Shown here: piece by piece, positions 3-15,256 of the stretch
How the letters are laid out: each line of letters starts with the position of its first letter
How positions within the stretch are numbered: position 1 is the stretch's first letter
Assembly: GCA_016788565.1 (NCBI GenBank)
Contig: JAEUSP010000063.1
Span: 1 to 64,000, forward strand
DNA from: Chlorobiota bacterium
GTDB lineage: Bacteria; Bacteroidota; Ignavibacteria; OLB7
Reading direction: 5' to 3'
DNA length: 64,000 nucleotides
The notes under the pieces: model-generated
What the model was told of the DNA's origin: nothing
Databases searched by the model: none
Seen by the model: the letters and a program-made list of their open reading frames with translations, nothing else
Made by a program: the position numbers and the translations under genes

Positions 3-341
3 GAGATTACTCGCAAAACCAAAAACTTGGGCGTTGAAATTACCTATGACTTTTTCAACGGGGATAAGACGCAACCACACTTCAGCAATAGGCCGGAATT
101 TGTGGGAACCGTGAAGCAAGTCAGTGAGTACATGGACAAAGAGATCAGGAATAACCAGGCGGCATTTTCCGCCACACAATTCTTTGTTGGGGGGAAGAGG
201 ATTATGGATACAGATTCAGCCAGTTGGGAGTATCTACGGAAAGGGCAAATTTTTACTTCTATCTGGGAAGAGTTACACTCCCCTATCGGGGAAGCAAAAG
301 ATAGCATCACGGTAACGGTGGAAGAGGTGAGCAATGACTAA
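3..341 (+). CDS. Hypothetical protein, 5' end outside window
   Basis: The frame is open to the left edge, so this is the C-terminal part (at least 112 residues) of a longer protein; the TTG at 27 is only an internal possibility. The visible part is mixed alpha/beta and ends in a strand-like segment (SITVTVEEV). No family is recognised. The last codons overlap the ATG of the next gene (334) by 8 bases, so it belongs to an overlapping operon with the genes at 334 and 905. If that neighbour is a Cse2-type subunit, this gene could be another part of the same system, but it does not look like the helical C-terminus of Cse1/Cas8e. Function unknown. Confidence 0.6.
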   Translation, partial: EITRKTKNLGVEITYDFFNGDKTQPHFSNRPEFVGTVKQVSEYMDKEIRNNQAAFSATQFFVGGKRIMDTDSASWEYLRKGQIFTSIWEELHSPIGEAKDSITVTVEEVSND

Positions 342-924
342 TCATGATGACTATATAACACCGATTGTCGCGCTGTATAAGTCTGGCAGCAGTAGCGGCC
401 AAACTAAGATCAAGATGCTGAAGCGTCTTAGAGAAACTCCATTGCAGGCTTGGTTGCCATTGTCCGCTTGGTTTGGTGGGGAACCGGACGAGGCGGCGTG
501 CATCACCGCCGTGTTGTATGCTTGCTATCCACACGTGTTCATCGAAGAACGGTTTCACAACGTGAATTTTGGGGATACCATGCGATACTTGCACAAGCAG
601 CAGTATAATAGTCAAACGGCAATCTCTGTTCAGCGAGCCTTTTTGCGATTGCTAAGGAGTAGCGTCATGGGAGTTGAAGGGGTGTACGCCGAAATACATC
701 GGTGTATTCGTATGCTGCAACAACCTAACACCCCGTATAGCATTGGCCGGCCTATCTATTGGGAGCCATACCTACTCACTCAAGACTTGAGGGCATTACT
801 GCTATACGGATCGGACGAACAATCAGAAGTGACGCGGCGTTGGGGAACGTCGTTCTTCCGGTCACAAACACCGACCAAGATTTACGCTGGAGGGGGCGAG
901 GAAGATGCCGCTACTACAAATTGA
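334..924 (+). CDS. Putative Cse2/Cas11e-like small effector subunit
   Basis: 196 residues, mostly helical. By eye it follows the layout of Cse2 (CasB), the small subunit of type I-E Cascade. There is an N-terminal 'LPLSAWFGGE' plus a helix ending in 'YACYPH' (residues 41-66), an 'NFGDTMRYL' segment (78-86), a helix 'VQRAFLRLLRSS' (99-110), and a C-terminal 'YWEPYLLTQDLRALL' followed by 'RRWGTSFFR' (142-176) that matches the Cse2 pattern W-x2-L-x2-DL ... RWA-x2-F. Length fits the family (about 150-200 aa). Its neighbours do not look like Cse1, Cas7, Cas5 or Cas6e, and no CRISPR array lies in the window. The call therefore rests on pattern resemblance only; it could be an unrelated helical protein. 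Confidence 0.4.
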   Translation: MTNHDDYITPIVALYKSGSSSGQTKIKMLKRLRETPLQAWLPLSAWFGGEPDEAACITAVLYACYPHVFIEERFHNVNFGDTMRYLHKQQYNSQTAISVQRAFLRLLRSSVMGVEGVYAEIHRCIRMLQQPNTPYSIGRPIYWEPYLLTQDLRALLLYGSDEQSEVTRRWGTSFFRSQTPTKIYAGGGEEDAATTN

Positions 925-1700: not shown

Positions 1701-2141
1701 TCATTTTTTATCGCCCGATACGATGTGCAGCACCCCTTCCAACTCCTGCATTGCGGCACTGACCGCCAACAGAGATGCCGAATCAGCATTCTTGACGTAA
1801 TGAAGCAATGCTTCATCCATCTTCAATTTAGCGGCATTGCAGCGTTCGGCAACCAATGGTAGCTTGCTATCAAGCTCAAACACCCTCCCGATACTTATGC
1901 CGTATTCGTTGGCAAGGTGAACCATATCATCCGCGCCAAAAGCACTTTTTCCTGCGATAATGTGGTTCACCCAACCGCGAGAACGGTTCAGCATCTTCTC
2001 AAATTCCATCAGGGATAGCCCCATTGCTTCCACCATTAGCCGCACCCGCTGACCTTGCCACTTGCGTGTGTCTATTGTCGGCTCGGCTGGTACTGATTGT
2101 GCTTTCTGCTTCCCTTCCCGATTATCCTGTGCGTTCCTCAT
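1701..2141 (-). CDS. XRE-type helix-turn-helix transcriptional regulator
   Basis: 146 residues from the ATG at 2141; a longer in-frame reading to 2282 would run across the probable operator and is less likely. Residues about 30-90 form a Cro/C1-type HTH: 'GLSLMEFEKMLNRSRGWVNHIIAGKSAFGADDMVHLANEYGI' is split here as helix 2 'SLMEFEKML', recognition helix 'RGWVNHIIAG' and then a helix that positions the domain. The C-terminal 50 residues are helical and may dimerise. The position at the border of an accessory patch, divergent from nothing nearby but facing a palindrome at 2221-2282, suggests a mobile-element or defence-type repressor that controls itself. Confidence 0.65.
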   Translation of the reverse strand: MRNAQDNREGKQKAQSVPAEPTIDTRKWQGQRVRLMVEAMGLSLMEFEKMLNRSRGWVNHIIAGKSAFGADDMVHLANEYGISIGRVFELDSKLPLVAERCNAAKLKMDEALLHYVKNADSASLLAVSAAMQELEGVLHIVSGDKK

Positions 2142-2220
2142 AATAGCCGCAAAATACGTTGTTTGAAAGAAATGCCTACATTCCGCCCGTGTTGCCAACA
2201 GCATCCGAAGTGACCATTGA

Positions 2221-2282
2221 GTGACAGTATGCCGATTGTCAGAAAAACGCGGTGTTTTTATGCAAAAAACGCCGCCTGTCAC
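2221..2282. promoter_or_regulatory. Palindromic candidate operator upstream of the HTH gene
   Basis: Nested inverted repeats: GTGACAG (2221-2227) with CTGTCAC (2276-2282) outside, and GCGGTGTTTTT (2249-2259) with AAAAACGCCGC (2265-2275) inside, separated by a 5-nt loop and with one G-T wobble. It lies 80-140 bases upstream of the start of the minus-strand repressor gene and is the only strong dyad in the region. A transcript hairpin is the alternative to a protein-binding site. Confidence 0.4.
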
Positions 2283-2304
2283 GTCCCTACGGTTGCACCC
2301 AACA

Positions 2305-2338
2305 AGGCTTCACAGAGTGACTGTGAGGCCTTTTTTTT
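2305..2338 (+). terminator. Intrinsic terminator, plus strand, without obvious upstream gene
   Basis: GGCTTCACAG (2306-2315) pairs with CTGTGAGGCC (2321-2330) with one wobble, loop AGTGA, followed by eight T. It is a textbook rho-independent terminator. No plus-strand coding gene ends before it, so it could end an unannotated small RNA or insulate the operon starting at 2412. Confidence 0.8.
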
Positions 2339-2411
2339 GTTCGGTGATGTTCCTTCCCGGGATAATCGTTGGCTACCTGGCCATATCCATCATCCCCCTG
2401 AAATTTGCACC

Positions 2412-3587
2412 ATGAAACTTGCATTTGTCTCGCAAACCTGGCCCGAGAACGCAACGGTGGAGTTCGCGGGGTCCAGCGTGCAGGTCTATTATTTGGTTCA
2501 GGAGTTTGCCCGCCGCGGCCACGAAGTCTTGTTGATCCTGACTCACCAGATAGACCCCATCCAGCCGCCATATCCTACTCTCTCCATCCGCACTGCTCCA
2601 ATCGTTTCTGGGCTGCGCCACCATTTGCGAAAATCTTGGCAGCGGTTCATCACTGATGCCCTATCCGGTTTCCAGCCAGACATCGTCTATCAGCGGGGGA
2701 AGCTGCCGGAATCGGTGGCGTGCAGCAATTTCTGCACAAAAAATAACGCCCTGTTTGTGTGGCTAAGCAACAGCGACGAAACCGGGAAGCCGAACAAGTT
2801 TTTAACGAAGCGGCGGCAACATCCCAAATCGAACCCAATCCTTCAGGCAGCAAGAATTGCCGAGGCAATGGTGGCCGATAAAAAAATTGAGCAAGCAATC
2901 CGCACTGCCGGAATGGTGATTGCCCAGAACACTTACCAAGCCGATCTGCTCCGGAGAAATTTTGGGATGAATCCGATCATTGCAGGCTCGGGCCACTTCA
3001 TTCCTCCGTTGATTGAGCGCGCACCAACCGATGAAATTTCAGTCCTCTGGCTGGCCAACGTCACCCCGGTAAAGCAGCCGCTGATGTTTATCGAGCTAGC
3101 CGAAAAATTATCCGGAACTCCATTGCGGTTCACAATGGCCGGGGCAATGCAGAACAAGGAGTTGCGGGAGGAAATTGAGCGGCGAACTGGGCTGTTACCG
3201 GGGTTCCATCTGGTTGGCCATGTTCCGTTTCATCAATCCAACGGGTTGTTCCAAGCTGCCGATATTTTTACTCACACCTCATCCAGCGAAGGGCTGCCGA
3301 ACACCTTGCTGCAAGCCTGCATCCACGGCGTGCCGATTGTGAGCCTGAAAAACGATCCCGATAACCTCATCACTAAGCATGGCTTCGGGATTGTGGCAAC
3401 TTCCATGGAGGAGTTTGCCCAGGCCGTACGCGGCCTTGCCGAAGACCACCAAGCCCGAAAAGAAATGGGGAGAAAAGGGAGGAAGTTTGCCGAGGAACAG
3501 TATGATATTCGGCTGCTGGTGGACAAATTGACGGCGTTGTTCCAGCAAGAACTTGCCCGCCGCAACGGCGTGGAAAGTGTGGTCTGA
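2412..3587 (+). CDS. Glycosyltransferase family 4-type
   Basis: 391 residues. Start chosen at ATG 2412, where the typical GT-B opening 'MKLAFVSQTWPENATVEF' begins; reading further upstream would cross the terminator. N-terminal Rossmann half (1-190) is the acceptor side. The C-terminal half carries 'VLWLANVTPVKQP' and 'SSSEGLPNTLLQACIHGVPIVS', the GT4 nucleotide-sugar motif in which the usual second Glu is a Gln (E-x7-Q). It should transfer a sugar from an NDP donor to a glycan or lipid on the cytoplasmic side of the membrane. First gene of a four-gene operon with the next stop/start overlapping as ATGA. Confidence 0.85.
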   Translation: MKLAFVSQTWPENATVEFAGSSVQVYYLVQEFARRGHEVLLILTHQIDPIQPPYPTLSIRTAPIVSGLRHHLRKSWQRFITDALSGFQPDIVYQRGKLPESVACSNFCTKNNALFVWLSNSDETGKPNKFLTKRRQHPKSNPILQAARIAEAMVADKKIEQAIRTAGMVIAQNTYQADLLRRNFGMNPIIAGSGHFIPPLIERAPTDEISVLWLANVTPVKQPLMFIELAEKLSGTPLRFTMAGAMQNKELREEIERRTGLLPGFHLVGHVPFHQSNGLFQAADIFTHTSSSEGLPNTLLQACIHGVPIVSLKNDPDNLITKHGFGIVATSMEEFAQAVRGLAEDHQARKEMGRKGRKFAEEQYDIRLLVDKLTALFQQELARRNGVESVV

Positions 3588-4672
3588 TGATTTCTCACGA
3601 ATGCAGCATGTCCGATTCCACTTCCTTTCCCGATTCCCTTTTTCGCAGGCTTGCCGCCGGGATGGCAATCCCCGCGCACCCGCTTGCGCTGGCCAACGAA
3701 CGCCAGCTTGACGAACGCCGCCAGCGCGCACTTACCCGCTACTACCTTTCGGCGGGGGCGGGGGGGATTGCTGTTGGCGTGCACACCACCCAATTCGCAA
3801 TCCGCCAACCGCAGTTTGGATTGTTCCGGCCCGTCCTGGAGCTTGCTGCGGAAACCGCTGCCGAGTTCCACCACCAAAACCCGTTGCTGGTTGCCGGCAT
3901 CTGCGGCCAAACCAAGCAAGCCGTTGCCGAAGCCGCCACCGCCGCCAGCCTGGGCTATCACGTTGGGTTGGTGTCGCTGGCGGCTTATGCTGGGGCCGGC
4001 GAGCGGGAAGCGTTGGAACATTGCCGGGCCGTTGCGCAGGTTATTCCGCTGTTCGGGTTCTACCTTCAGCCGGCGGTTGGCGGGCGGATTCTTTCGGCAG
4101 AATTTTGGCGGCAGTTTGCCGAGATACCGAACGTGGTGGGGATCAAAATTTCTCCGTTCAATCGCTACCACACCATTGATGTTGTCCGTGGCGTGATCGA
4201 GTCGGGAAGGGGGGAGCAGATTGCGCTGCTGACCGGAAACGACGATGCCATTGTGAGCGACCTGCTGACGGAGTTCCAAATCCCGCACGGCGGCGCAACC
4301 CACCGCAAACGAATTGTGGGCGGCTTGCTTGGCCACTGGGCGTTTTGGACCAAGCGTGCTGTTGAGCTTTTGGGCAGATGCCACGCTGAGTATGCGAGCG
4401 GCGCGATTACTCCAAACCTTCTGACGATTGGCGCGCAAACCACCGAAGCGAACGCCGCATTCTTCGATGCTGCCAACAATTTTGCCGGCTGCATCCCCGG
4501 CATTCACGAGGCGTTGCGGCGGTCGGGATTGCTGGCAAACCGCTTCTGTTTGGACCCGCACGAGGAGCTTTCGGCGGGGCAGATGCGGGAGATTGACCGC
4601 ATCTATCAACTCTACCCTCACCTGACCGACGACGACTTTGTGCGCCAGCATCTTGACGGCTGGATGCGGTGA
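3587..4672 (+). CDS. DapA/NanA-superfamily aldolase or lyase
   Basis: 361 residues, longer than DapA itself (about 290). A TIM-barrel of the dihydrodipicolinate synthase/N-acetylneuraminate lyase superfamily. The Schiff-base lysine is in 'VVGIKISPFNR' and the catalytic tyrosine in 'FGFYLQPAVGG'. The region that reads GTTGE in DapA is replaced by 'GVHTTQF', so the keto acid handled is probably not the DapA one. Start overlaps the previous stop (ATGA at 3587); ATG 3608 is possible. Its operon with a glycosyltransferase and a Gfo/Idh oxidoreductase suggests a role in an unusual sugar or sugar acid. Confidence 0.85.
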   Translation: MISHECSMSDSTSFPDSLFRRLAAGMAIPAHPLALANERQLDERRQRALTRYYLSAGAGGIAVGVHTTQFAIRQPQFGLFRPVLELAAETAAEFHHQNPLLVAGICGQTKQAVAEAATAASLGYHVGLVSLAAYAGAGEREALEHCRAVAQVIPLFGFYLQPAVGGRILSAEFWRQFAEIPNVVGIKISPFNRYHTIDVVRGVIESGRGEQIALLTGNDDAIVSDLLTEFQIPHGGATHRKRIVGGLLGHWAFWTKRAVELLGRCHAEYASGAITPNLLTIGAQTTEANAAFFDAANNFAGCIPGIHEALRRSGLLANRFCLDPHEELSAGQMREIDRIYQLYPHLTDDDFVRQHLDGWMR

Positions 4673-4710
4673 AAAAATCCCACCAACAACCAACCCAACT
4701 GCTGCAAACA

Positions 4711-5709
4711 ATGGCCACGCAACAACCCCCCTTCAACATCGGCATCATCGGCTGCGGCGCGATTGCACGCGAACATCTGGCGGCTATCCAAACCATTCCC
4801 GGGTTGAAGCCCTACGCCTACTGTGACCTTCACGGCGAACGCGCCGAATCGTTCTTGCGCGACTACGGCGGAAGCTATGCCGCCACCAGCCCAGGCCGGT
4901 TGCTGGATGACCCTGCAATCAACGCCCTCTACATCTGCACTCACCATGATACTCACACCCCGCTTGCGGTAGCTGCGTGCGAAGCCGGAAAAAATGTGAT
5001 GATGGAAAAACCGCTGGCTTTAACCGTTGATGAGTGCACCGAAATCGGCCAAGCAGCCGAGCGAACGGAGGTGATATTTATGACCGGGTTCAAGCTCCGC
5101 TACAACCCTGTTGTGCTGAAGTCGCGGGAATTTTTGCCGAACCCAACGTTCGTGATGGCGCAGATAATGGACACCCGCTGGCCCGATGATTTCTGGGCGC
5201 AGGACCCGGTGAAAGGTGGCGGAAACGTGCTGTCGCAAGGGTGCCACGCAATGGATATGGCGTGCTTCCTGAACGGCACGGACCCGGTGGAAATTTTTGC
5301 CGAATGCGGAACCCGTTCCCACACCAACACCCAGGTGATAGATTCCTTAGTGGCCACCATCCGCTTTGCCAACGGAAACCTTGCCAGCGTGGCGATTGGC
5401 GACAGCGGAACGGTTCCACATCTCTCCAAATTCGCCTTCCAAGCCGTTGGCGGCGGGCGTTCGGTGCTGCTGCACGACCGGTTGAAACGGGGTGAGTATT
5501 TCGATGGTGAGTCCTCCGAATCGGTGGTGCAGCCGTGCGAGTTGGGGATGGAGTTGGAGAATCGTGAGTTCCTTTCCGCGATTGCTGAAGGCCGCCGGCC
5601 CGCAACCGGGTGGCGCGACGGTTTGCGGGCAACCGCCATGATCCGCGCCGCGTTCCGCGCCGCCGAAACCCGCACCGCGCAATCGCTTCACCTTCCCGCA
5701 CACCGATGA
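4711..5709 (+). CDS. Gfo/Idh/MocA family NAD(P)-dependent oxidoreductase
   Basis: 332 residues from ATG 4711; a GTG at 4669 that overlaps the previous stop would add 14 residues. N-terminal Rossmann fold with 'IGIIGCGAIAREH', then the family signature 'EKPLALT' (catalytic-site Lys), a central 'GFKLRYNPV' segment and a C-terminal alpha/beta sugar-binding domain with 'GGGNVLSQGCHAMDM' carrying the expected His. Such enzymes oxidise or reduce sugars or inositols. Coupled with its neighbours by overlapping stop/start codons. Confidence 0.85.
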   Translation: MATQQPPFNIGIIGCGAIAREHLAAIQTIPGLKPYAYCDLHGERAESFLRDYGGSYAATSPGRLLDDPAINALYICTHHDTHTPLAVAACEAGKNVMMEKPLALTVDECTEIGQAAERTEVIFMTGFKLRYNPVVLKSREFLPNPTFVMAQIMDTRWPDDFWAQDPVKGGGNVLSQGCHAMDMACFLNGTDPVEIFAECGTRSHTNTQVIDSLVATIRFANGNLASVAIGDSGTVPHLSKFAFQAVGGGRSVLLHDRLKRGEYFDGESSESVVQPCELGMELENREFLSAIAEGRRPATGWRDGLRATAMIRAAFRAAETRTAQSLHLPAHR

Positions 5710-8498
5710 CCACCAACGCCACCACCAACGCCACCAGGCCAGGGGATTGGCCAGGCTTCCGGCACGATTCCCAACTAAGCGGCCACCAGCCGCTTGCCGG
5801 GAATATCCACCACCCCCGTGTGATTGCCCGCTACCCGATTTCCGGCCCAGTCTTCCACGCCCAGCCGATTACTCTGGATGGCGAGCCGCTGCTGTTGATG
5901 CTGTGGGGCGGGGCGCTGCATTGCCTCCGGTTGGATGGAACCCTCCGGTGGAAGTCAATCCCGATGGGCTTCGAGGGGGTTGTGGCGGTGGACGATCTGG
6001 ACAACGATGACCGGATCGAAATCGTGCTGACCAACGGGCGAACGATTGCGGTGATTGCTGCCGATGATGGAGCGGTGCTGTGGCAAGAATATCTGGGGCC
6101 ACCCTACTCCGCCGGGTTCATGCCCACTGGCGCGCTGGTTCACCATTTCCCGCAGATCGGTTCCGGCAAACAGTTGGCGGTTGGATTGCTCAGTTCCAAG
6201 GAGGTGATCCTGTACGACTTCACCCCCGGCGCAAGCAATCCGCGCAGGCTTCACACACTTTGGATGGATGATTTCTTTCACCCAACAATCCTTGCTTGCG
6301 ACGTGGACGGCGACGGAGCCGACGAGCTAATCGTCACGAAATATGCGGCCATCTACACCTTCAATCCGCTCACCGGCCAGCTGAAATCGGCCTGCCATTG
6401 GTCCAGCGGCGGCACCCCAAAACGGAACTACGGCCTGTTTCTGGCGCGTGACCTGTGCGGGGCCGGCGCGGTTGATTTTGCGGTGCTTTCCAACCGCGTT
6501 TCCAAGCATCTTGCGGTGGTGGCCAACAACGGGCGGGGCCAGCTTTCCATTGCTTGGGATCGCTTCATCGAGCATATCTACCCAACCGACAGCCGCGAGC
6601 TTCGCTACACCTTCAACTCCTGCGCGGACCTTGATGGCGACCAACGGATGGAGATTGCAATCAGCACATTCAACGAGGTTGAGGATTCGGCCTGGCATCT
6701 GGAAATTTTGGATGCACGGTCGGGCCAGCTTCGGCTGGATTGCAAGGGGCTGATGTTGCACGGCGTTCAGCAAGATTCGGGCGGAGGGTGGATGATTCTG
6801 GCAAGCCGCCAAACCGAGCGGCAGCCGAGGGAGCTTGCAACAATCGGAGCCTACCGCTACGACGGAGCCGAACTTCAAACAATCTGGGAGCTGCGGGAAT
6901 CGGCGTTTGCCGGGCGGTTCTGCGGCCATGATGCTGCCACATCGGTGTTCCGCTCGGAGCTTCCGCCGGAAGATGAAGTGTGGGCCGTGTGGGCCGATGG
7001 ACTTCTGACCATTCCAATTTTTCAAGATGGAGGTCGGCTGCGGTTGTTCCAGCAGCAGCCGGATGGGGCTTGGAGTTGGCATCCAACATTTGCCGCCGAC
7101 AACGTGGCCGCGCTGCTACTCTGCAGCGACCTGAATCGGGACAAGCGGACGGAGTTTCTGGTAAGCTGCTGGGATGGAGTCTGCCGGATACTCCGTGCCG
7201 ATGGAACCACCGTCAGCAGTTGGCGCGCTGGGCTGCGGGCGCGCCCGGGGACTGGCCCTTATTACCTTTCCCGCCCGATGCAAACGCCAACGGTGGTGGC
7301 GGCCAACCAGCAACAGTTCTGCGCGGTTCCCGATGGTGGGAACCAGGTTCATCTGCTGAAGTGGTCGCCTGAAAGTGGCGGGCTAATCGCCGATGAAATT
7401 TTGGTTGGGCGCGGGCGTGTTGGGCCGGAAGAGACGTTCCACTCTGCCGATTTTTTTTGCATCGGGGATCGCTGGACGCTTCCGCTCAGCGTGGTGGGGG
7501 AAGGAACCAGCGCGTTGGTGCTTCGCGAGATTTGCGGCGGCAAGCCAGTTGTCGGGATTATCCCGTGCGAGAAATTTCCGGCCTCGCCAGCGCAGCCTTC
7601 CGGCAGAATTGGGCTGAGTGAGTTCGCCTATCTGGAAACGGAAAACGGGCCGCGTTGGGTTCTTGCCGGCTACGCCTCGGCCTCGATGAACAGCGAGCGG
7701 ACAGTGGGAATCGGGGAGCGGGAGAGAGCAGAGATGTGGCAGCAGAGGTTGATTGGCGGCGGCGAGGATGGGCGCGGATTCGGGCCCTGGAATGCGTGGT
7801 CAGTTCTGGAGCAACCGGGCGGGAAAACCAGCTTGCTGTTTCTTGCAAAGGACACCGTTTGCCAAGTTGATGCGGCAACGGGGGCGTTCCTTCATCCACC
7901 CTGGCAGCTTCGCCAGTTCAACACTGCCGACATGCGCCGGCGCGGGCTTACGATGGATGATTTTGCAGCCTACGGCGCGCTGATTCCCTGCGACGTTGAC
8001 GGGGATGGAGCAACGGAATATCTGGTTGCCGGGGCCTACGGCGGGGTGGGGGTTATCAACCCGGATCACACCATGAGGTGGTGGCAAACGGCCCCACTCT
8101 CATCGCTCTGCGGAAGCCTTCCGGGGATTGCCGATGTTGATGGAGATAGCTTCCCGGAGCTTGGCCTAAGCTATGCCAACGGCGATTTTGTTTGCCTGCG
8201 GGCCAGCGATGGGCTGGAACAATGGCGGATTCATCTTGGAAGCCAAGCCACCGGCGTTATCGCCTGCGACATTGACGGCAACGGTAAACCGGAATTTATT
8301 CTCTCCACACAGGGGGGCGAGTTGGTGGCGGTTGGCCTTGCCAGCAACGGCGTTGGTGTGGTGAAGTGGCGGATGAAATTCGGCTACACGCTTGGCCAGC
8401 CAATCGCCGCCGACATCAACGGCGACGGAAAAAGTGAGGTGATTCTGGTGAGCGGGGAAGGGGAGGTTGTTGTGGTGGCCGATAGGACTTTCACGTAA
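5706..8498 (+). CDS. Large FG-GAP/PQQ-like beta-propeller protein
   Basis: 930 residues; ATG 5706 overlaps the previous stop. Eight Ca-binding-like loops of the form D-x-[DN]-x-[DN]-x2-[ST/P]-E are seen: DLDNDDRIE, DVDGDGADE, DLDGDQRME, DLNRDKRTE, DVDGDGATE, DVDGDSFPE, DIDGNGKPE and DINGDGKSE. These lie in repeats that also resemble PQQ-type blades (WRIHLGSQATGV). Two or more propellers are likely. No signal peptide and no membrane helix are visible, which is odd for this usually extracellular class. Role unknown; the operon suggests glycan binding or sensing. Its stop codon lies inside the 8-bp direct repeat that borders the following mobile block. Confidence 0.75.
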   Translation: MTTNATTNATRPGDWPGFRHDSQLSGHQPLAGNIHHPRVIARYPISGPVFHAQPITLDGEPLLLMLWGGALHCLRLDGTLRWKSIPMGFEGVVAVDDLDNDDRIEIVLTNGRTIAVIAADDGAVLWQEYLGPPYSAGFMPTGALVHHFPQIGSGKQLAVGLLSSKEVILYDFTPGASNPRRLHTLWMDDFFHPTILACDVDGDGADELIVTKYAAIYTFNPLTGQLKSACHWSSGGTPKRNYGLFLARDLCGAGAVDFAVLSNRVSKHLAVVANNGRGQLSIAWDRFIEHIYPTDSRELRYTFNSCADLDGDQRMEIAISTFNEVEDSAWHLEILDARSGQLRLDCKGLMLHGVQQDSGGGWMILASRQTERQPRELATIGAYRYDGAELQTIWELRESAFAGRFCGHDAATSVFRSELPPEDEVWAVWADGLLTIPIFQDGGRLRLFQQQPDGAWSWHPTFAADNVAALLLCSDLNRDKRTEFLVSCWDGVCRILRADGTTVSSWRAGLRARPGTGPYYLSRPMQTPTVVAANQQQFCAVPDGGNQVHLLKWSPESGGLIADEILVGRGRVGPEETFHSADFFCIGDRWTLPLSVVGEGTSALVLREICGGKPVVGIIPCEKFPASPAQPSGRIGLSEFAYLETENGPRWVLAGYASASMNSERTVGIGERERAEMWQQRLIGGGEDGRGFGPWNAWSVLEQPGGKTSLLFLAKDTVCQVDAATGAFLHPPWQLRQFNTADMRRRGLTMDDFAAYGALIPCDVDGDGATEYLVAGAYGGVGVINPDHTMRWWQTAPLSSLCGSLPGIADVDGDSFPELGLSYANGDFVCLRASDGLEQWRIHLGSQATGVIACDIDGNGKPEFILSTQGGELVAVGLASNGVGVVKWRMKFGYTLGQPIAADINGDGKSEVILVSGEGEVVVVADRTFT

Positions 8499-8556
8499 CG
8501 GGTGCATTTCAATTTGGGGTAGTGGCTCACATAGGGGAGGATAAATAGTAAGACGC

Positions 8557-8877
8557 TCAACTGAGAAACTGAAGATTGTAGCGATGCAGAAACAGCAGCA
8601 AAGCGTACTCGTGCATTTTCACGCATTTTGAAAATGAAAGCGTCTTGCGGACAAACCGCCCGATCCGTTGTCGCAGCGTGTTGTTCCATCGCTCCACATG
8701 CGCCGTCTGCCCACTCTCCTTACCAACGGTAGTATCCCTGATTATCGTTTGGCCAGTACCTAAATAGTTACCCGAAGCCACGCTAAACCTAAGCGAATTC
8801 CCCGCCGGAACATATTTCTGCCGATTGGGTGAGGAAACACGAGTTGTTGTGGTGGTGCGGTAAGCAGTGTTTGCCAC
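8557..8877 (-). pseudogene. IS1-family transposase, C-terminal fragment
   Basis: 106-residue frame whose last 55 residues match the InsB C-terminus of cyanobacterial-type IS1 elements: '[20 protein letters not shown]' followed by '[24 protein letters not shown]'. The zinc-finger N-terminus and the first catalytic Asp of the DDE transposase are absent; the gene at 8884 begins where they should be. The first ~25 residues of the frame look like non-homologous sequence. It reads towards the terminal repeat at 8500, as expected for the 3' end of an IS1 copy. Probably inactive. Confidence 0.8.
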
Positions 8878-8883
8878 GCACCA

Positions 8884-10914
8884 CTACTGCTCCACCCGCA
8901 AACCAATGCTCTTGGAGAAAAGCCACTCTTCTGTGAGTTGCTTGTTCCCTTCCGATGGTGCTTGCCCGGCTTGGAGTGATTTCCCGACCGCTGTTGTGAT
9001 TGCTTTTGCTACTTGGTTGCCGACTGCAATTTCGCGTTGGTCCACAACAACCCGATTTCCGGGAAGTACATCGCCAAGAACGTAGCGGAGCGTTTGCTCG
9101 TTCCCGGCGGCCAGCAACGGGAAGTAGCTGGCTGGAAACATCGTTCCGGTGGTGATGACCCTTGTTATTTGGTTGGTGTCTTGCTCGGCCAGCACCTCCA
9201 CCCGAAGCGTGTCGGCGGCAATCGCTTCCACGCCCAGCGAATCTATCACCCGCAGCGTGGCCACCAACGGCGCGGTTGCTTCCCGTTCCCGCAGGTTTTG
9301 CAGCGTGAGCAGCTTGCTGGCTGATGCGGAATTGGCCGAAGCAGAGAGTGAGTCGGCACCCAGGCTGCGGTACAGCAACTGGCGATCCTGTTGCTGGATG
9401 GTGATGCTCCAATCTTGCACCCCAGCATCTGCCTGGATTGTGTGCTCAATCCCGATCCCCGGCGCGGCCATTCGGCGAACAATCCATTCCCAAAAAATTG
9501 GGGCCGCCAGCGCGCTATCCTCCGTTTCCACCATCACCCCGCTGAACTCAGGCATCGGCTGGCGTTGCGGATCACGCTCGGCCACCACTACTCTGCGCCG
9601 CGCAACACCCCAGACGGAGGTGAGGTAGTGCTGCACCTGTTTTGCGCGTTCGTCGGCCAGCTCGGCAGGTTCGCCGGAAGCCGTGTGGCCAATCAGCCGA
9701 AGGGTGCTGCTTTTCTGCTGCCGCATCCGCTGGCCGATGATGTTTAGCAGGTGATGATAGACCTGCACCGAATCCAAACCAGCAAGCGTGGCGTTGCTGA
9801 AGGCTGCGGTTTCGGCGGGTGAAATCTGGTGGTAGCGGGTTGGCAGCCGCACATCGCCATGCCCGAAAAAAATCACCGGAAGCAGCGTCAGCACGTTGCG
9901 GTAATGGACCCGATATGGAATGATCTGTGCCACCTGTTGCTGGCCTCCAGTGGTGGTGTACAGATCAATGCTGGCCTTGATTGGTGCTGGCGCGGCGGGC
10001 GGCGGAATAGTTGGAGTTGGCGGCAGACGTAGCTGCGGCGGGTCCGGGACAACCGCCACCGAAACGCCAACCAAACTGCTGAACGCACGCAGCCCCAACC
10101 CGTCGGCAATGGAGGTTACGTTGCAGCGCACACCGAATCGGGGAGAGGCCAGCAGGCCAAATCCAACTGGCACGCCGAACTCGATGGCGGCATCAATCCC
10201 GGCGTGGAGCGGTGGGGCGATGGCATCCGGAAGCAACGGGATGGCGCGGGTCCGCTGGCCGCCGGGAAAGGTGATGGAGTCGGGGGAGAGAAGCTCCTCG
10301 GCAATGGCCACATCTTCAGCAAACCGCCACGTTCCCCACAGCCCCAGCGATAGCCAACCACGGCCACCAATAGGAACGCTGGCGTTAGTGGAAATCTGCG
10401 CCAACGCCGAAGTCCCATGGACGGTGAATTGGCGTGCAGTTGGGATTACGCTGGCAGTGGATGAATCAACAATGGTGACGGTGAAGGGGTTGGAGGTGAA
10501 GCTGGCAACCGACGGGGCGACGGCTCCGCCAACGGACCAACGCCACCCCTTGCCAAGAAGTGAGTCGTGGTGAAGCTGCGCGCCAATCCAGATGGTGTGT
10601 GATTGGGAAGTTCCATCGCCATTCACCCCCAGCTGGTTCACCTTCCCCGAATCGCGGCGCAGCAGCAGCGGCGTGCCGAACTCATACCCCACCGACGGAG
10701 CAATCGTAATCGCCGATTGTGCCGATGCCGTCACCGTCAAGATCACCGTCAGAATCACAGATAACACCAGCCAAACCACCACCAAAACCGGAAGCCAAAA
10801 AATGGACACGGGCCTGTGCCACAGCACAGACCCGAAGTCGTTTGGGCGATATGGGGGATACGGGTTCAGCGAAATTTCATCGCTCCCAAAAACCTTTGTA
10901 GGCTTGGTAGGCAA
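8884..10914 (-). CDS. Outer-membrane protein with OmpA-like domain
   Basis: 676 residues. A cytoplasmic 30-residue lead is followed by a very hydrophobic segment ending '...TVTASAQSA', a signal peptide or anchor (residues about 35-67). Then comes a beta-rich region (70-290), a Pro-rich linker (292-312), and an OmpA-like peptidoglycan-binding domain: 'FFGHGDVRLP', then 'STLRLIGHTASGEPAELADERAKQVQHYL' in two parts, about residues 345-450. The C-terminal 200 residues are another beta-rich module. Its start overlaps the end of the upstream lipoprotein gene by 38 bases, so the two are translationally coupled. It stops a few bases from the IS1 remnant, so the C-terminus might be altered. Confidence 0.7.
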   Translation of the reverse strand: MPTKPTKVFGSDEISLNPYPPYRPNDFGSVLWHRPVSIFWLPVLVVVWLVLSVILTVILTVTASAQSAITIAPSVGYEFGTPLLLRRDSGKVNQLGVNGDGTSQSHTIWIGAQLHHDSLLGKGWRWSVGGAVAPSVASFTSNPFTVTIVDSSTASVIPTARQFTVHGTSALAQISTNASVPIGGRGWLSLGLWGTWRFAEDVAIAEELLSPDSITFPGGQRTRAIPLLPDAIAPPLHAGIDAAIEFGVPVGFGLLASPRFGVRCNVTSIADGLGLRAFSSLVGVSVAVVPDPPQLRLPPTPTIPPPAAPAPIKASIDLYTTTGGQQQVAQIIPYRVHYRNVLTLLPVIFFGHGDVRLPTRYHQISPAETAAFSNATLAGLDSVQVYHHLLNIIGQRMRQQKSSTLRLIGHTASGEPAELADERAKQVQHYLTSVWGVARRRVVVAERDPQRQPMPEFSGVMVETEDSALAAPIFWEWIVRRMAAPGIGIEHTIQADAGVQDWSITIQQQDRQLLYRSLGADSLSASANSASASKLLTLQNLREREATAPLVATLRVIDSLGVEAIAADTLRVEVLAEQDTNQITRVITTGTMFPASYFPLLAAGNEQTLRYVLGDVLPGNRVVVDQREIAVGNQVAKAITTAVGKSLQAGQAPSEGNKQLTEEWLFSKSIGLRVEQ

Positions 10915-12415
10915 TCACCGATGGAGTTCGCGTGGCAACATCCACCACCTCCAACGTTCCCCCTTGTTGGAACTCTGGTAATTGCGTGAAGGAGGTGTAC
11001 ATCACCTCTTTTCCATCCGGGGACCATTGCGGGAACAGGTCGTGCAGCACCACTGCGATAAGGCGGTCGGGGCTGAGTTTCTGTTTTGCGGACCACGTTC
11101 CGGTTGCTGGGTTACTCTGGGTCATTGCTACCTGGTAAATCCCGGCCACAAACGTGCTGCTGAAAGCAAGGCTTGTTCCGTCGGGGGACCAGACTGGCCA
11201 GAAGTCATCGGCTGCATCGTTCGTCACGTTCACCGGAGCCGAGCCGCCGTTGGCCGCAACAATGAAAATATCTTGGTCGCTCCCGCTTCCCCGACCAACG
11301 TATGTGATGGAACGGCCATCGGGAGACCAATCAAGCCCGCCCCGCCCGTAGGTAGTTTTTGTTGGCGTTCCCGACTTCGATGAATAGGCGTTGGTGGCCA
11401 CCGGGTTGGATGTTCCACTGCCGATAACTGCGACCTCGACAGTGTTGTTGAACCCGTAAAATGCAATGCTGTTGCCGTCGGGAGAAAAAGTTGGGGTCGC
11501 GCCCAATTCTTGGATTCCGAACAGGTCCACCAGACCTCCATCAACATCAAAAATTAGCAGTTCGTAGCGGGCAAACGGGGGGACGGCAATTTTGCTCATG
11601 GTAGCAATCGCCACCCGTTTTCCGTTTGGCGAAATTGCTACCGAGGCAACGTCAAGGTCATGGATGCTATCGGTCAGGTGCACCCGGCGGTCGCTGCCGT
11701 CAGTCTTGATCGTCACCAGCGAAAGCGTTGGCCCAGTTAGGTCGTTGGCCAGATATGCAATCCGCCCCGCGCGTGGTGCCGAACTCAGCAGCACGTTGTT
11801 ATCCAACTTGTTCAAGGTTAGCCCGCGGTCGTTTGTTCCCATCAAGTGGTAGATCGGTTCCAACGACCCACTGGTAGCCGGAGCGGTAGCCGGCAGGTAG
11901 TTGAAAAATATCCCTCCATTTTTTTTCGTTGGCGTTGGCGTGGGGATCAGAACGCTATCAAGGGTATAATTCAGGACAGCCACAGTGTCGTTGGCGGCAT
12001 AGAGGTGGAGCGTTGTGGCCGTGACTTTGTACGAAGTCACCTTTTCCAGCGCGTTCAAGTACATTGGTTCGATGGAGTTCTCGCTACACCACCGCTCGGT
12101 AGCGAAGATATTCCGCAGGGTCATTGCACTTGTGGCTGTGTCGGCAGTGTATTCGCCGCCGAACTGGTTGCAGCCGGTGTAGCCCCCCATGCCGTTGGGG
12201 CTGGTGAAGGTGATAGTTGCATGGTGGCTGGCAACGTTCACCACTGCCCCGGTGTTGGTTTGGTAGGAAGCCAGGCTCCAGATGATATTCCGCAACGGTG
12301 ATGTTGCGGGATTGCCGGTGGGGGCGGGGGGGAAATCATCGCGGCATCCGGCAAGCAATGCCAGGGTCAATGCAATAATGCTGATGCTGCGCCAACGATT
12401 CATTCTGCTGTTCAT
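10877..12415 (-). CDS. Lipoprotein with META-type and TolB-like propeller domains
   Basis: 512 residues from ATG 12415. The lipobox 'LALLAGC' (Cys about 19) makes it an envelope lipoprotein. Residues about 40-145 carry 'GCNQFGGEYTAD' and 'MTLRNIFATERWC', typical of the META/HslJ domain. The rest has WD40-like PD40 repeats: 'SPNGKRVAIAT', 'SPDGNSIAFYG', 'SPDGRSITYVGRG', 'SPDGTSLAFSST' and 'SPDGKEVMYTS', a TolB-like propeller. It is divergent from the ECF sigma gene at 12644 and followed by the OmpA-like gene, so the pair is a good candidate target of that sigma factor. Confidence 0.75.
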   Translation of the reverse strand: MNSRMNRWRSISIIALTLALLAGCRDDFPPAPTGNPATSPLRNIIWSLASYQTNTGAVVNVASHHATITFTSPNGMGGYTGCNQFGGEYTADTATSAMTLRNIFATERWCSENSIEPMYLNALEKVTSYKVTATTLHLYAANDTVAVLNYTLDSVLIPTPTPTKKNGGIFFNYLPATAPATSGSLEPIYHLMGTNDRGLTLNKLDNNVLLSSAPRAGRIAYLANDLTGPTLSLVTIKTDGSDRRVHLTDSIHDLDVASVAISPNGKRVAIATMSKIAVPPFARYELLIFDVDGGLVDLFGIQELGATPTFSPDGNSIAFYGFNNTVEVAVIGSGTSNPVATNAYSSKSGTPTKTTYGRGGLDWSPDGRSITYVGRGSGSDQDIFIVAANGGSAPVNVTNDAADDFWPVWSPDGTSLAFSSTFVAGIYQVAMTQSNPATGTWSAKQKLSPDRLIAVVLHDLFPQWSPDGKEVMYTSFTQLPEFQQGGTLEVVDVATRTPSVIAYQAYKGFWER

Positions 12416-12533
12416 GGTTGTTCTCCGGGAAGTTACGTGATTAAGGGTGCAGTTTCTCCTGCCGAAAAAAGTTGCCACAAGCTACAAAGCGACCACTTTC
12501 TTCACACCTAAACGACGCACCAGTTGCGCTTGG

Positions 12534-12600
12534 CCTGACAGTGGGAGGTGAGTTCAGGAAGATTTTTTTTCAGAACGGCCTTCTGTCAGGTTTGGCGGGG
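12534..12600. promoter_or_regulatory. Divergent control region with CCTGACAG/CTGTCAGG dyad
   Basis: Between the divergent lipoprotein (start 12415) and sigma factor (start 12644) genes, CCTGACAG (12534-12541) recurs inverted as CTGTCAGG (12593-12600), with a T-run between. The arms could bind one regulator from both sides or form part of two back-to-back promoters. No clear TAnnTTTG box is seen, which fits ECF-dependent promoters. Confidence 0.3.
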
Positions 12601-12643
12601 GTGCTGCGTCATTGAGTTGTATCCGTAGGAATGTAGAGTATCA

Positions 12644-13324
12644 ATGGCTATTGCTTCAACAGTACTGAACGCGCCAATCCAGGTCGGCCCCGACACTGGT
12701 GAAACTGGCGCAGTGTGGTCCCGCGACGCGCTCCTGCTGCAACGATTTCAGCAAGGGGACGATGCCGCATTTCTGGAACTGTTCCAGCGGCACAACCCCG
12801 GGCTGTTTCGCTACTGTGTAAAGGTGTTGGGGAATCAAAGTGAGGCGGAAGATATCACCCAGGACACGTGGGAAAAGATCATCCAGCTACGGAAGGGAAC
12901 GCAGGTCGTCAGCAATCCTTCGGGGCTGATTTTTCGCATGGCGCGGAACGCCTGCATCAGCCAACTGCGCCGCCGCGGAAGATGGATCACCGTGGAGGAG
13001 TTTGATGAAAACGCCCTACCGCTTCATGCTGCCGAATCAGCTTCGGAATTAGAAGAAGTTGCCCTTGCCGCATTGGAGGAGCTTCCGTTTGAGTATCGCG
13101 AAGTCTTGGTGCTGCATCTGTACTGTGGTTATCGGTATGATGAAATTGCTGTGATGATGGAGCGAACCCCCGAGGCAATCTGGGCGCGTGCTTCGCGGGC
13201 AAGGGGGCAACTGCGGAAAATGGTAGCGGCGGCACTTGCAGGGGGGCGTGGAATCAACAACACTCAATCATCTCAATCAACGGCTGCGAAAGCATCACAC
13301 GTTGGAGAACAAACAAATGAATGA
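12644..13324 (+). CDS. ECF-type RNA polymerase sigma factor
   Basis: 226 residues. Sigma region 2 at about 30-100 ('LLQRFQQGDDAAFLELFQRH', 'SEAEDITQDTWEKI', 'RMARNACISQLRRR') and region 4 at about 140-195 ('LPFEYREVLVLHLYCGYRYDEIA', 'RTPEAIWARASRARGQLRKM'). The 27-residue N-terminal extension and Ser/Thr-rich tail are unusual but not diagnostic. The stop overlaps the ATG of the next gene by 8 bases, the usual sigma/anti-sigma coupling. It likely directs transcription of its own operon and the divergent envelope genes. Confidence 0.9.
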   Translation: MAIASTVLNAPIQVGPDTGETGAVWSRDALLLQRFQQGDDAAFLELFQRHNPGLFRYCVKVLGNQSEAEDITQDTWEKIIQLRKGTQVVSNPSGLIFRMARNACISQLRRRGRWITVEEFDENALPLHAAESASELEEVALAALEELPFEYREVLVLHLYCGYRYDEIAVMMERTPEAIWARASRARGQLRKMVAAALAGGRGINNTQSSQSTAAKASHVGEQTNE

Positions 13325-13967
13325 ACAAGAACGGAGCCGCTTGATTGAGCGGATTGTGGAGAATCACCTCAATGAATCGGAGCGTGCCGAACTGCTTCCA
13401 CAGCTTGGCGAAGGCACCAACGTCCGGCAGGAGTTGTTGGCCGAGCAAGCCATCTCCCGCGCAATTGCCCGCGACCGTCAGCAGCTGCCGGTTGCTTCCA
13501 CAACTCCATCCCCGCGACTGTTAGATGCGCTCTCCAACGCTCCAGTGCTTCCCTCGGCAGCGGCTTCCTTTTGGGGTAGCGGTGGGCTTTTGGTTGGGTT
13601 TTCGTTAGTGATAGTTGTTGGAGTTGGCCTTATGCTGTTTCCGGGGTTGTTTGGTATATCGGGCGATGCTGCTCCTACCAGCCGTGAGGTTCCCCCAGCT
13701 GCCGTCGCTGACACCTCATCGTCTATTCCCGTCGTCATTCCCTCCACCTCTTCCGAGCCGAACGAGGGGAAGAAGTGGAGGAGGGAAGCATCACCGTCGG
13801 CTTCGGCAACAACAAAGGGAGCTGCCAAGACAGAAAAGGAGCTGGGCAATCCATCCACACCCGTGCTTGATGGGAAGCCAGCACCACCAACAGAACACCA
13901 GGGTCAACAGCCACAACTTCCGGTCTTTCACGATAACAGCGGGGCGATGCCGATTTCCCCCAAATAA
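13317..13967 (+). CDS. Putative anti-sigma factor, single membrane span
   Basis: 216 residues from ATG 13317; translation overlaps the sigma gene. The N-terminal 75 residues are charged and helical ('EQERSRLIERIVENHLNESE'), as in cytoplasmic anti-sigma domains. One membrane helix lies at about 82-105 ('LLVGFSLVIVVGVGLMLFPGLFG'), and the periplasmic part is a low-complexity Pro/Ser/Thr-rich tail. No zinc-binding HxxxCxxC motif is seen. The anti-sigma role is inferred from position and topology, not from a recognised domain. Confidence 0.6.
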   Translation: MNEQERSRLIERIVENHLNESERAELLPQLGEGTNVRQELLAEQAISRAIARDRQQLPVASTTPSPRLLDALSNAPVLPSAAASFWGSGGLLVGFSLVIVVGVGLMLFPGLFGISGDAAPTSREVPPAAVADTSSSIPVVIPSTSSEPNEGKKWRREASPSASATTKGAAKTEKELGNPSTPVLDGKPAPPTEHQGQQPQLPVFHDNSGAMPISPK

Positions 13968-14095
13968 TTGAGGGGATGGGAGTTTGGGACAAGAAGAATG
14001 AATAGAGAATGGGGATGGAGGGTGAGGAAAAAAGTAGAGTGAAGTCACGGTTCGTGGCCTCTTCAGGATTCGTCCGTAAAAACTTGTGGCACAGG

Positions 14096-14126
14096 TTGTT
14101 GTGAGTAGGGTTCGGGGCTATCTTTG
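14096..14126 (+). promoter_or_regulatory. Bacteroidota-type promoter of tRNA-Glu
   Basis: The -7 box TATCTTTG (14119-14126) fits TAnnTTTG exactly. TTGTTG at 14096-14101 lies 17-20 bases upstream, where the -33 TTTG element belongs. Transcription would start near 14131, about 40 bases before the mature tRNA. Confidence 0.6.
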
Positions 14127-14171
14127 CGGCCCGATCAACACAACGCAGGCCGTTGTGAGGGATCAGCGGCT

Positions 14172-14243
14172 GCTCCCATCGACTAGTGGTTAGGTCGCCA
14201 CCCTTTCAAGGTGGTAGCACGGGTTCGAATCCCGTTGGGAGTA
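14172..14243 (+). tRNA. tRNA-Glu (anticodon UUC)
   Basis: Complete cloverleaf. Acceptor arm GCTCCCA (14172-14178) with TGGGAGT (14236-14242, first pair a G-U), D-arm with TGGTTAGG, anticodon stem CCACC/GGTGG around loop CTTTCAA with anticodon TTC at 14205-14207, T-arm ACGGG-TTCGAAT-CCCGT, discriminator A at 14243. CCA is not encoded. It is followed at once by a strong terminator and, on the other strand, by a recombinase fragment, the usual layout of an island attached at a tRNA. Confidence 0.95.
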
Positions 14244-14246
14244 CTG

Positions 14247-14280
14247 AAGGGAACACTAAAAACGGTGTTCCCTTTCTATT
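14247..14280 (+). terminator. Terminator of tRNA-Glu
   Basis: Ten-bp perfect stem AAGGGAACAC (14247-14256) / GTGTTCCCTT (14265-14274) with an 8-nt A-rich loop, followed by TCTATTTTC. It begins 4 bases after the tRNA. Confidence 0.9.
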
Positions 14281-14382
14281 TTCGGCGATTCTGTTGAAAA
14301 ATGAACGTTTTCCCCTTGTTACGCTCTTGGTGTTTTTAGGTATTCGTTTGCCTTCTTTGGGAATTTATTCTTAACACATTCT

Positions 14383-14934
14383 TCACGTATTCTTCACACG
14401 CTCCATCTCGATTCGCTTTGATAGATCCGCCGCTTGCTGTTGTTGCTCTCGGTAGTGTTTTTGGCGCACCGCTCCACGGTGTCCGGCTAAGTCTTCAATC
14501 AACCTATCGCTGAACCCAAGTGCTTCCCACCGTTTTTCTGCACTGCCACGCAAGGTGTGTAGCGTCCGGTGATACCGCTGGCCGTCATCACCCACACGCT
14601 GCATCCAAATGCCACACGCTACACACGCCTTTCTAAACTCTTCCTGCAAAACAGAGGGATAGGCCCATGGCCAAACATAGCCTTGCCGGTGAAGGAATCG
14701 CTGTGATTGAACTTCCTCCAATATCTCTCCAATCTCAGGAAATAGCGGCTCGTTCTCCGCATTCCGCAACGGGAAGAATCGGATACGCTTCCGTTGGCCT
14801 TTTGTCCCTTTTCCCAAAACAGTGAACTGGTGCGGCTCCACATGCTCACGCTTCATCAATGATAGCTCACCGGGCCGCAATGCCGTTAGATACAGGAACC
14901 ACACCGCTAACCCGTGCACACGCTTCCCCACCGA
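14383..14934 (-). pseudogene. Tyrosine recombinase (integrase), N-terminally truncated
   Basis: About 182 residues remain, the catalytic domain of a phage-type integrase. The catalytic set is visible: Arg in 'TALRPGELSLM', His-x-x-Arg in 'HTLRGSAEKRW', His in 'LAGHRGAV' and the nucleophile Tyr in 'KHYRE'. The frame begins at a GTG (14931) right after an in-frame stop, and the arm-binding and core-binding N-terminal domains (usually 150-200 residues) are missing. An IS630-like remnant starts about 55 bases further upstream, so a transposon event probably removed them. Its 3' end points at the tRNA-Glu gene 140 bases away, suggesting an old tRNA-targeted island. Confidence 0.8.
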
Positions 14935-14987
14935 AAACAGATAAGTACTTCAGTAGAATTAGTCGAGATTAAGTAATAGCTTAGGAT

Positions 14988-15122
14988 ATGAGCCGAGTCA
15001 ATACGCCGAAATTAAGCGAAGAAGGGCGAAAATCTTTAGAAGAAGGTCATCGCAGTGGAAGAACACACGTTTACCGAGTTCGCTGTAGCGATGGGCGAAC
15101 ACCGGAGCGCAGCATGTTCTGA
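14988..15122 (+). pseudogene. IS630-like transposase, N-terminal remnant
   Basis: A 44-residue frame, 'KLSEEGRKSLEEGHRSGRTH' then 'VYRVRC', resembles the start of IS630-type transposases ('...LEKGHR-x-GKSHVYRVRCQMILLKSEGR'). After RVRC the frame diverges and stops at 15122; a second frame stays open to 15209. No catalytic DDE part exists. The right terminal repeat of the large block follows at 15203. The assignment rests on a short stretch. Confidence 0.5.
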
Positions 15123-15256
15123 ATCTCCGAGTTGCTTCGATGAGCGATCGTTGGGGGCTGGTCGTCGAGAAAATCAAACACCCGACCCATGCGTCCACAC
15201 TTCCAAATTGAAATGCACCCCACGTAACGAACCTCCAATATCTTTTTATCTCACTC

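What the first reader, a model, noticed from the sequence alone, without database searches (positions are those of the whole stretch)
2412..8498. Four-gene operon joining GT4, DapA-like lyase, Gfo/Idh oxidoreductase and a cytoplasmic-looking FG-GAP propeller
All junctions overlap or nearly so, which means coordinated production. The DapA-like enzyme lost the GTTGE motif, the GT4 has Gln instead of the second Glu, and the propeller has eight Ca-binding loops but no export signal. I know of no named pathway with this gene set; it may make or sense an unusual sugar.
Basis: partly seen in the sequence, partly recalled or inferred. Interest (0 to 1): 0.58.

Follow-up and report, generated by a model that had tools for sequence, protein, structure and literature searches.

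The report
Half of a split sugar-uptake pathway
Four overlapping bacterial genes form a real operon that looks like half of an undescribed, split pathway for taking up and breaking down an unknown sugar compound, including an unusual cytoplasmic propeller protein whose job is not known.

Summary
The four-gene operon is real (2412-8498): GT4, DapA-like, Gfo/Idh and a cytoplasmic FG-GAP propeller. A sister species carries the same block; similarity stops at its borders and all four genes are under purifying selection. No third genome with all four was found.

The operon joins two modules. Gfo-propeller is a fixed pair (adjacent in 9 of 9 testable genomes); in other genera it runs into a nitrilase-family gene and an ABC sugar importer. 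In the window's genome those genes lie on another contig, followed by an SDR. The widespread DapA-like family has that same SDR directly upstream in 25 of 33 loci. Operon plus distant locus thus carry one gene set: importer, nitrilase, two dehydrogenases, a Schiff-base lyase, the propeller. Catabolism of an imported sugar conjugate fits better than making or sensing a sugar. Substrate, propeller activity and GT4 role are unknown.

Seven searches of open papers found no description. Verdict: a real, undescribed variant of a carbohydrate-utilisation gene set, of moderate interest.

The parts
2412..3587 (+). GT4-type glycosyltransferase, 391 aa, EX7E motif reads E-x7-Q; close relatives seen only in this genus
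   Evidence: Pfam; start and motif; relatives; dN/dS 0.16
3587..4672 (+). DapA-like class I aldolase/dehydratase family, 361 aa; Lys187 and Tyr159 kept, GTTGE replaced by HTTQF
   Evidence: Pfam; 42-sequence conservation; model pLDDT 92 and PDB fold matches; motif alignment
4669..5709 (+). Gfo/Idh/MocA NAD(P) oxidoreductase (conserved start probably ATG 4711); EKP and HxxD active-site motifs present
   Evidence: Pfam; motifs and starts; 42-50% identical partners of the propeller in other genera
5706..8498 (+). 930-aa FG-GAP propeller protein without export signal, eight DxDxDG loops, many invariant polar residues
   Evidence: Pfam; loops and N-termini; four-sequence alignment; 10 of 245 class genomes

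Best explanation
The operon is one half of a split catabolic gene set for an imported sugar or sugar conjugate that probably contains a C-N (amide-like) bond. Shown: the gene content, the conserved Gfo-propeller pair, its linkage in other genera to the nitrilase and ABC importer, and the presence of those orthologues plus the SDR at a second locus of this genome. Inferred: (1) the ABC importer (locus 2) brings the compound in; (2) the Gfo/Idh enzyme oxidises a ring hydroxyl; (3) the cytoplasmic Ca-loop propeller binds and probably cleaves or rearranges the oxidised sugar; (4) the nitrilase-family amidase hydrolyses a C-N bond; (5) the SDR and the DapA-like Schiff-base enzyme oxidise and split the sugar-derived 2-oxo product. 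The GT4 is a genus-specific addition whose role is open (glycosyl transfer or storage of the imported unit, or a retaining transfer or phosphorolysis-like step).
For: Gfo lies next to the propeller in 9 of 9 genomes where the contig allows a test (the tenth, G049, is cut at the contig end). Order Gfo-propeller-nitrilase-SBP-Gfo2-enolase-permease-permease in G016, and the same without Gfo2 in G506. All 10 of 10 propeller genomes carry a nitrilase orthologue, which only 13 of 245 class genomes have; by genus 4 of 4 propeller genera lie within 6 of 129, p 1.4e-6, not corrected for phylogeny. In the window genome: nitrilase 60%, SBP 35%, permeases 62 and 57% identical to those of G016, then the SDR. 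SDR directly upstream on the same strand of the DapA-like gene in 25 of 33 loci. A DHDPS-family gene with an altered HT motif stands in the importer operon of 5 of the 6 propeller genomes of genus g12 (the sixth, G031, was not read there). FGGY kinase and isomerase orthologues are shared between SDR-DapA and Gfo-nitrilase clusters.
Against: The DapA-like orthologue itself does not track the propeller (1 shared genus, p 0.15). Of 33 genomes holding its relatives, 1 has the nitrilase and 0 the propeller (one search had no positive control in its set). The enolase of the other clusters is absent from the window genome. No substrate is indicated by any single gene. A GT4 is unusual in a catabolic set.
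Confidence: 0.55

Rival explanations
1. Biosynthesis: the four genes make or attach an unusual sugar (glycolipid, polysaccharide or small glycoside), with GT4 as the transferase and Gfo/Idh and DapA-like as sugar-building enzymes.
For: GT4 leads the operon in both species; Gfo scores against UDP-GlcNAc 3-dehydrogenase too (2e-21); sialic-acid-type sugars are made or cleaved by NAL-like enzymes (recalled) and the DapA-like model matches NAL folds.
Against: Outside this genus no relative of this GT4 stands beside the Gfo-propeller pair, which runs into a nitrilase and importer; DapA-like and SDR relatives lie among sugar-catabolic kinases, isomerases and hydrolases.
Confidence: 0.17
2. Sensing or scaffold: the propeller is a cytoplasmic ligand-binding or assembly protein, and the enzymes are its clients.
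For: Propeller repeats often bind partners (recalled); nearest solved sequences are weak hits to ITFG2 and BBS2/BBS7 complex subunits.
Against: Always paired with an oxidoreductase in the 9 testable genomes; invariant polar clusters such as HxLWMDD, RNYG, WDR, SMNSE and GRGxGPW look like a ligand or active site, which does not decide between the two.
Confidence: 0.13
3. Loose co-location: the four genes are expressed together but serve unrelated tasks; the operon is a recent lineage-specific fusion.
For: Complete set found in only two genomes of one genus; DapA-like does not track the propeller.
Against: Block kept with all four genes under purifying selection and shared borders at about 0.6-0.7 synonymous changes per site; both modules have partners at one second locus in the same genome.
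Confidence: 0.15

Closest known systems
DHDPS / N-acetylneuraminate lyase superfamily (Pfam PF00701)
   Same: TIM-barrel fold over residues 14-356 (VIA Z up to 34.2 against DHDPS entries; Foldseek top hit C. glutamicum NAL), Schiff-base Lys and Tyr, two Thr of the carboxylate motif
   Different: 14-21% identity in the structural alignments; HTTQF instead of GTTGE; extra conserved blocks FNRYxTxDV, TGNDD, GGLLGH; SDR partner gene
Gfo/Idh/MocA oxidoreductases (inositol 2-dehydrogenase, 1,5-anhydrofructose reductase and relatives)
   Same: Rossmann and C-terminal domains, EKP and HxxD motifs
   Different: Below every NCBIfam equivalog cut-off; fixed partner of a propeller
FG-GAP / integrin-type propellers, including polysaccharide-acting ones (lambda-carrageenase propeller PF25292, YesW/YesX)
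   Same: FG-GAP repeats with Ca-loop consensus, weak profile similarity
   Different: No export signal, 930 aa, own invariant residues, paired with a dehydrogenase
Non-phosphorylative sugar-acid pathways (Weimberg/Dahms type, recalled) and importer-linked carbohydrate clusters
   Same: Dehydrogenase, enolase-superfamily member (other genera) and DHDPS-family lyase near an ABC importer
   Different: Nitrilase, propeller, SDR and GT4 are not part of the described pathways as I know them; no enolase-superfamily MR_MLE_C match in the window genome

Membership tests
DHDPS/NAL superfamily | (beta/alpha)8 DHDPS fold | tested here: met
   Model pLDDT 92.1; PDB matches Z up to 34.2, rmsd 2.1 over 296 residues
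DHDPS/NAL superfamily | Schiff-base Lys and catalytic Tyr | tested here: met
   Lys187 and Tyr159 invariant in 32 of 32 sequences of A2, aligned with the NAL Tyr and Lys; chemistry itself not tested
DHDPS/NAL superfamily | GxTGE/GTTGE carboxylate motif | tested here: not met
   HTTQF at that place; both Thr kept, Gly-Glu replaced by Gln-Phe
4-hydroxy-tetrahydrodipicolinate synthase (DapA proper) | NCBIfam TIGR00674 cut-off 206 bits | tested here: not met
   14.9 bits; a strong PF00701 match (295 bits) lies elsewhere in the genome
GT4 | GT4 fold families and EX7E motif | tested here: inconclusive
   PF00534/PF13692/PF13439 over cut-off; second Glu is Gln in both species; no structure or activity tested
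Gfo/Idh/MocA | Rossmann domain with EKP and HxxD | tested here: met
FG-GAP propeller | FG-GAP repeats with DxDxDG loops | tested here: met
   PF13517 8e-22, eight loops
FG-GAP propeller | number of blades / closed propeller | tested here: inconclusive
   Single-sequence model failed, mean pLDDT 36
Non-phosphorylative sugar-acid pathway | enolase-superfamily sugar-acid dehydratase in the set | tested here: not met
   No MR_MLE_C match in the window genome; one sub-cut-off match in the sister; IlvD type not tested

The most novel reading that the evidence does not exclude
The cytoplasmic FG-GAP propeller is an enzyme of a new kind that acts on a sugar just oxidised by its fixed Gfo/Idh partner, as the core step of an undescribed pathway in which a nitrilase-family amidase and a Schiff-base lyase of altered motif finish the breakdown of an amide-bearing sugar.
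Probability: 0.3. Interest if true: 0.68.

Novelty: new variant of a known kind. Interest (0 to 1): 0.44.

Why it matters
It ties four unassigned protein families (the propeller, its Gfo partner, the nitrilase, and the widespread SDR/HTTQF-lyase pair) into one testable gene set. The SDR-lyase pair alone occurs across many phyla, and the lyase also in the archaeon Caldivirga, so assigning its substrate would annotate many genomes. A soluble cytoplasmic FG-GAP enzyme would also be unusual.

Tried and rejected
Structure of the propeller: single-sequence AlphaFold2 gave pLDDT 36 and was not searched. PDB sequence and profile searches gave only weak FG-GAP hits. Literature: searches returned 0 papers; two searches returned 5 and 3 papers, unrelated by title and abstract start; one search returned 1,535 papers (12 listed), none on this set by title. 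I saw listings only and opened no paper. Idea that the 766-769 aa genes near DapA-like genes in other loci are the same as the 767 aa gene in G049: rejected, no similarity. Idea that DapA-like and propeller co-occur generally: not supported. G016's DapA-like copy (37%) was first counted as an orthologue and then left out because of its very long branch.

Full report
What was checked. The window is contig C86 of a 4.58 Mb, 137-contig genome. The four ORFs exist as described. GT4 and DapA-like share one base, Gfo/Idh and propeller share four. The DapA/Gfo overlap depends on a GTG start; the ATG conserved in the sister species leaves 38 bases. Pfam and NCBIfam confirm the family names, but none of the four reaches an NCBIfam cut-off.

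Is it one unit? In the only other member of the genus found (G001), the same four genes stand in the same order at 82-88% protein identity. Nucleotide similarity (81%) covers window 2283-8493 and stops there on both sides; the next shared DNA in the window lies at 15246 and beyond. Nei-Gojobori dN/dS is 0.16 (GT4), 0.14 (DapA-like), 0.11 (Gfo) and 0.18 (propeller), so all four are maintained. The DapA-like gene was sought in 61 relatives, 395 phylum genomes and 245 class genomes; the propeller in 395 phylum and 245 class genomes; the GT4 in 61 relatives. Beyond the genus no genome was found with all four.

Module 1, Gfo-propeller. The propeller occurs in 10 of 245 class genomes, in 4 of 129 genera. 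A 42-50% identical Gfo/Idh gene is its neighbour in all seven testable genomes outside this genus, plus both members of the genus: 9 of 9, with G049 untestable because the contig ends. In G016 and G506 the pair runs straight into a carbon-nitrogen hydrolase, a family-1 ABC binding protein, an enolase-superfamily gene and two permeases, with a second Gfo/Idh gene in G016. In G040 and G031 the nitrilase follows the propeller; in G049 one further 767-aa gene stands between. In the remaining five propeller genomes (G000, G001, G013, G434, G441) the nitrilase stands at another locus, at the head of an importer operon. Overall the nitrilase is directly followed by the importer binding protein in 8 of 10 propeller genomes; in G040 the importer operon is elsewhere on the contig, and in G031 it was not located. 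All 10 propeller genomes have this nitrilase; only 13 of 245 class genomes do. By genus the overlap is 4 of 4 propeller genera within 6 of 129, p 1.4e-6 by the hypergeometric test, with phylogeny not corrected. Three genomes with nitrilase but no propeller (G042, G438, G460) still have Gfo beside it, with an FGGY kinase next to it and, in two of the three (G042, G438), a xylose-isomerase-like gene.

Module 2, SDR-DapA-like. A genome-collection scan returned 33 loci with 46-63% identical DapA-like genes, from Acidobacteriota, Planctomycetota, KSB1, Omnitrophota, Elusimicrobia, Paenibacillaceae, Bacteroidota, Verrucomicrobia and the archaeon Caldivirga, among others. In 25 of 33 an NAD-epimerase-type SDR (PF01370) lies directly upstream on the same strand. 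In one it is divergent; three loci are cut at a contig end; four lack it. The SDR exists in the window genome, but on contig C26, following nitrilase-SBP-permease-permease on the same strand, and the same in G001. So both modules of the window operon point to this one distant locus.

The DapA-like enzyme. Sixty-one columns are invariant over 32 sequences, among them Lys187, Tyr159, His66 and Thr68. An AlphaFold2 model with that alignment has pLDDT 92 and matches DHDPS, NAL and 4-hydroxy-2-oxoglutarate aldolase folds. The motif GTTGE reads HTTQF: the Thr pair is kept, Gly-Glu is not. This points to an active class I lyase or dehydratase on a 2-oxo substrate of changed shape, not to a dead enzyme; that step is inference. 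A tree puts the window pair on its own branch without a supported close relative. Genus g12 carries another DHDPS-family gene with an HT motif (WAHTGRG) in the importer operon, next to a gene with a weak, sub-cut-off dihydroorotate-dehydrogenase match.

The propeller. It is 930 aa with eight Ca-loop motifs and no hydrophobic leader in any of four homologues. Alignment of four sequences shows many invariant polar residues (HxLWMDD, RNYG, WDR, SMNSE, GRGxGPW, AKDxxC), which suggests a ligand pocket. Its fold could not be predicted from one sequence.

Reading. The most economical account is a catabolic set for an imported sugar compound, split over two loci in this genus. Neighbours of both modules elsewhere include sugar kinases, a xylose-isomerase-like enzyme, an N-acylglucosamine 2-epimerase family member, M20 peptidase-family genes, a KDPG aldolase, a galactokinase-like gene and glycoside hydrolases. 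The recurrence of C-N hydrolases (nitrilase, M20) hints at an amide bond. The order of steps and the substrate are inferred, and the GT4 is unexplained.

Limits. The DapA-like gene alone does not co-occur with the propeller beyond this genus (p 0.15), though it does with the nitrilase (3 of 5 genera, p 6e-4). Of the 33 genomes with its relatives, 1 has the nitrilase (G560, where Gfo-nitrilase-importer and SDR/DapA-like lie on two contigs) and 0 the propeller (which lacked a positive control). Seven literature searches of an open-access library found no description (listings only), and subscription papers were not covered.

Noticed in passing
L016-L048 (loci), centred on the DapA-like gene: The SDR plus HTTQF DapA-like pair is itself a widespread unnamed two-gene module; neighbours by Pfam include a serine dehydratase beta chain (L037), a Cys/Met-type PLP enzyme (L019), an M20 peptidase (L043) and a ceramidase-like N-domain (L038).
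   Followed up: partly
L088, L089, L090: A Gfo-nitrilase pair without propeller stands beside an FGGY kinase (and a xylose-isomerase-like gene in L088 and L089); L051 has orthologues of both beside SDR-DapA-like and an N-acylglucosamine 2-epimerase.
   Followed up: partly
window 14172-14931: tRNA-Glu (+) followed by a gene with a weak phage-integrase match (-), inside a stretch (8494-15245) that has no match in the fetched sister-species stretch: possibly an integrated element.
   Followed up: no
window 334-921: ORF with a weak CRISPR Cse2 (PF09485) match just below cut-off, so the start of the window may be part of a type I-E cas operon.
   Followed up: no
window 1701-2282 (-): Divergent gene with weak helix-turn-helix matches next to the operon; a possible regulator, but similarity to the sister locus stops at 2283, so it is not conserved there.
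   Followed up: partly
L082 3169-5472: 767-aa protein without any Pfam match between propeller and nitrilase in G049; unrelated to the 766-769 aa genes near DapA-like loci.
   Followed up: partly
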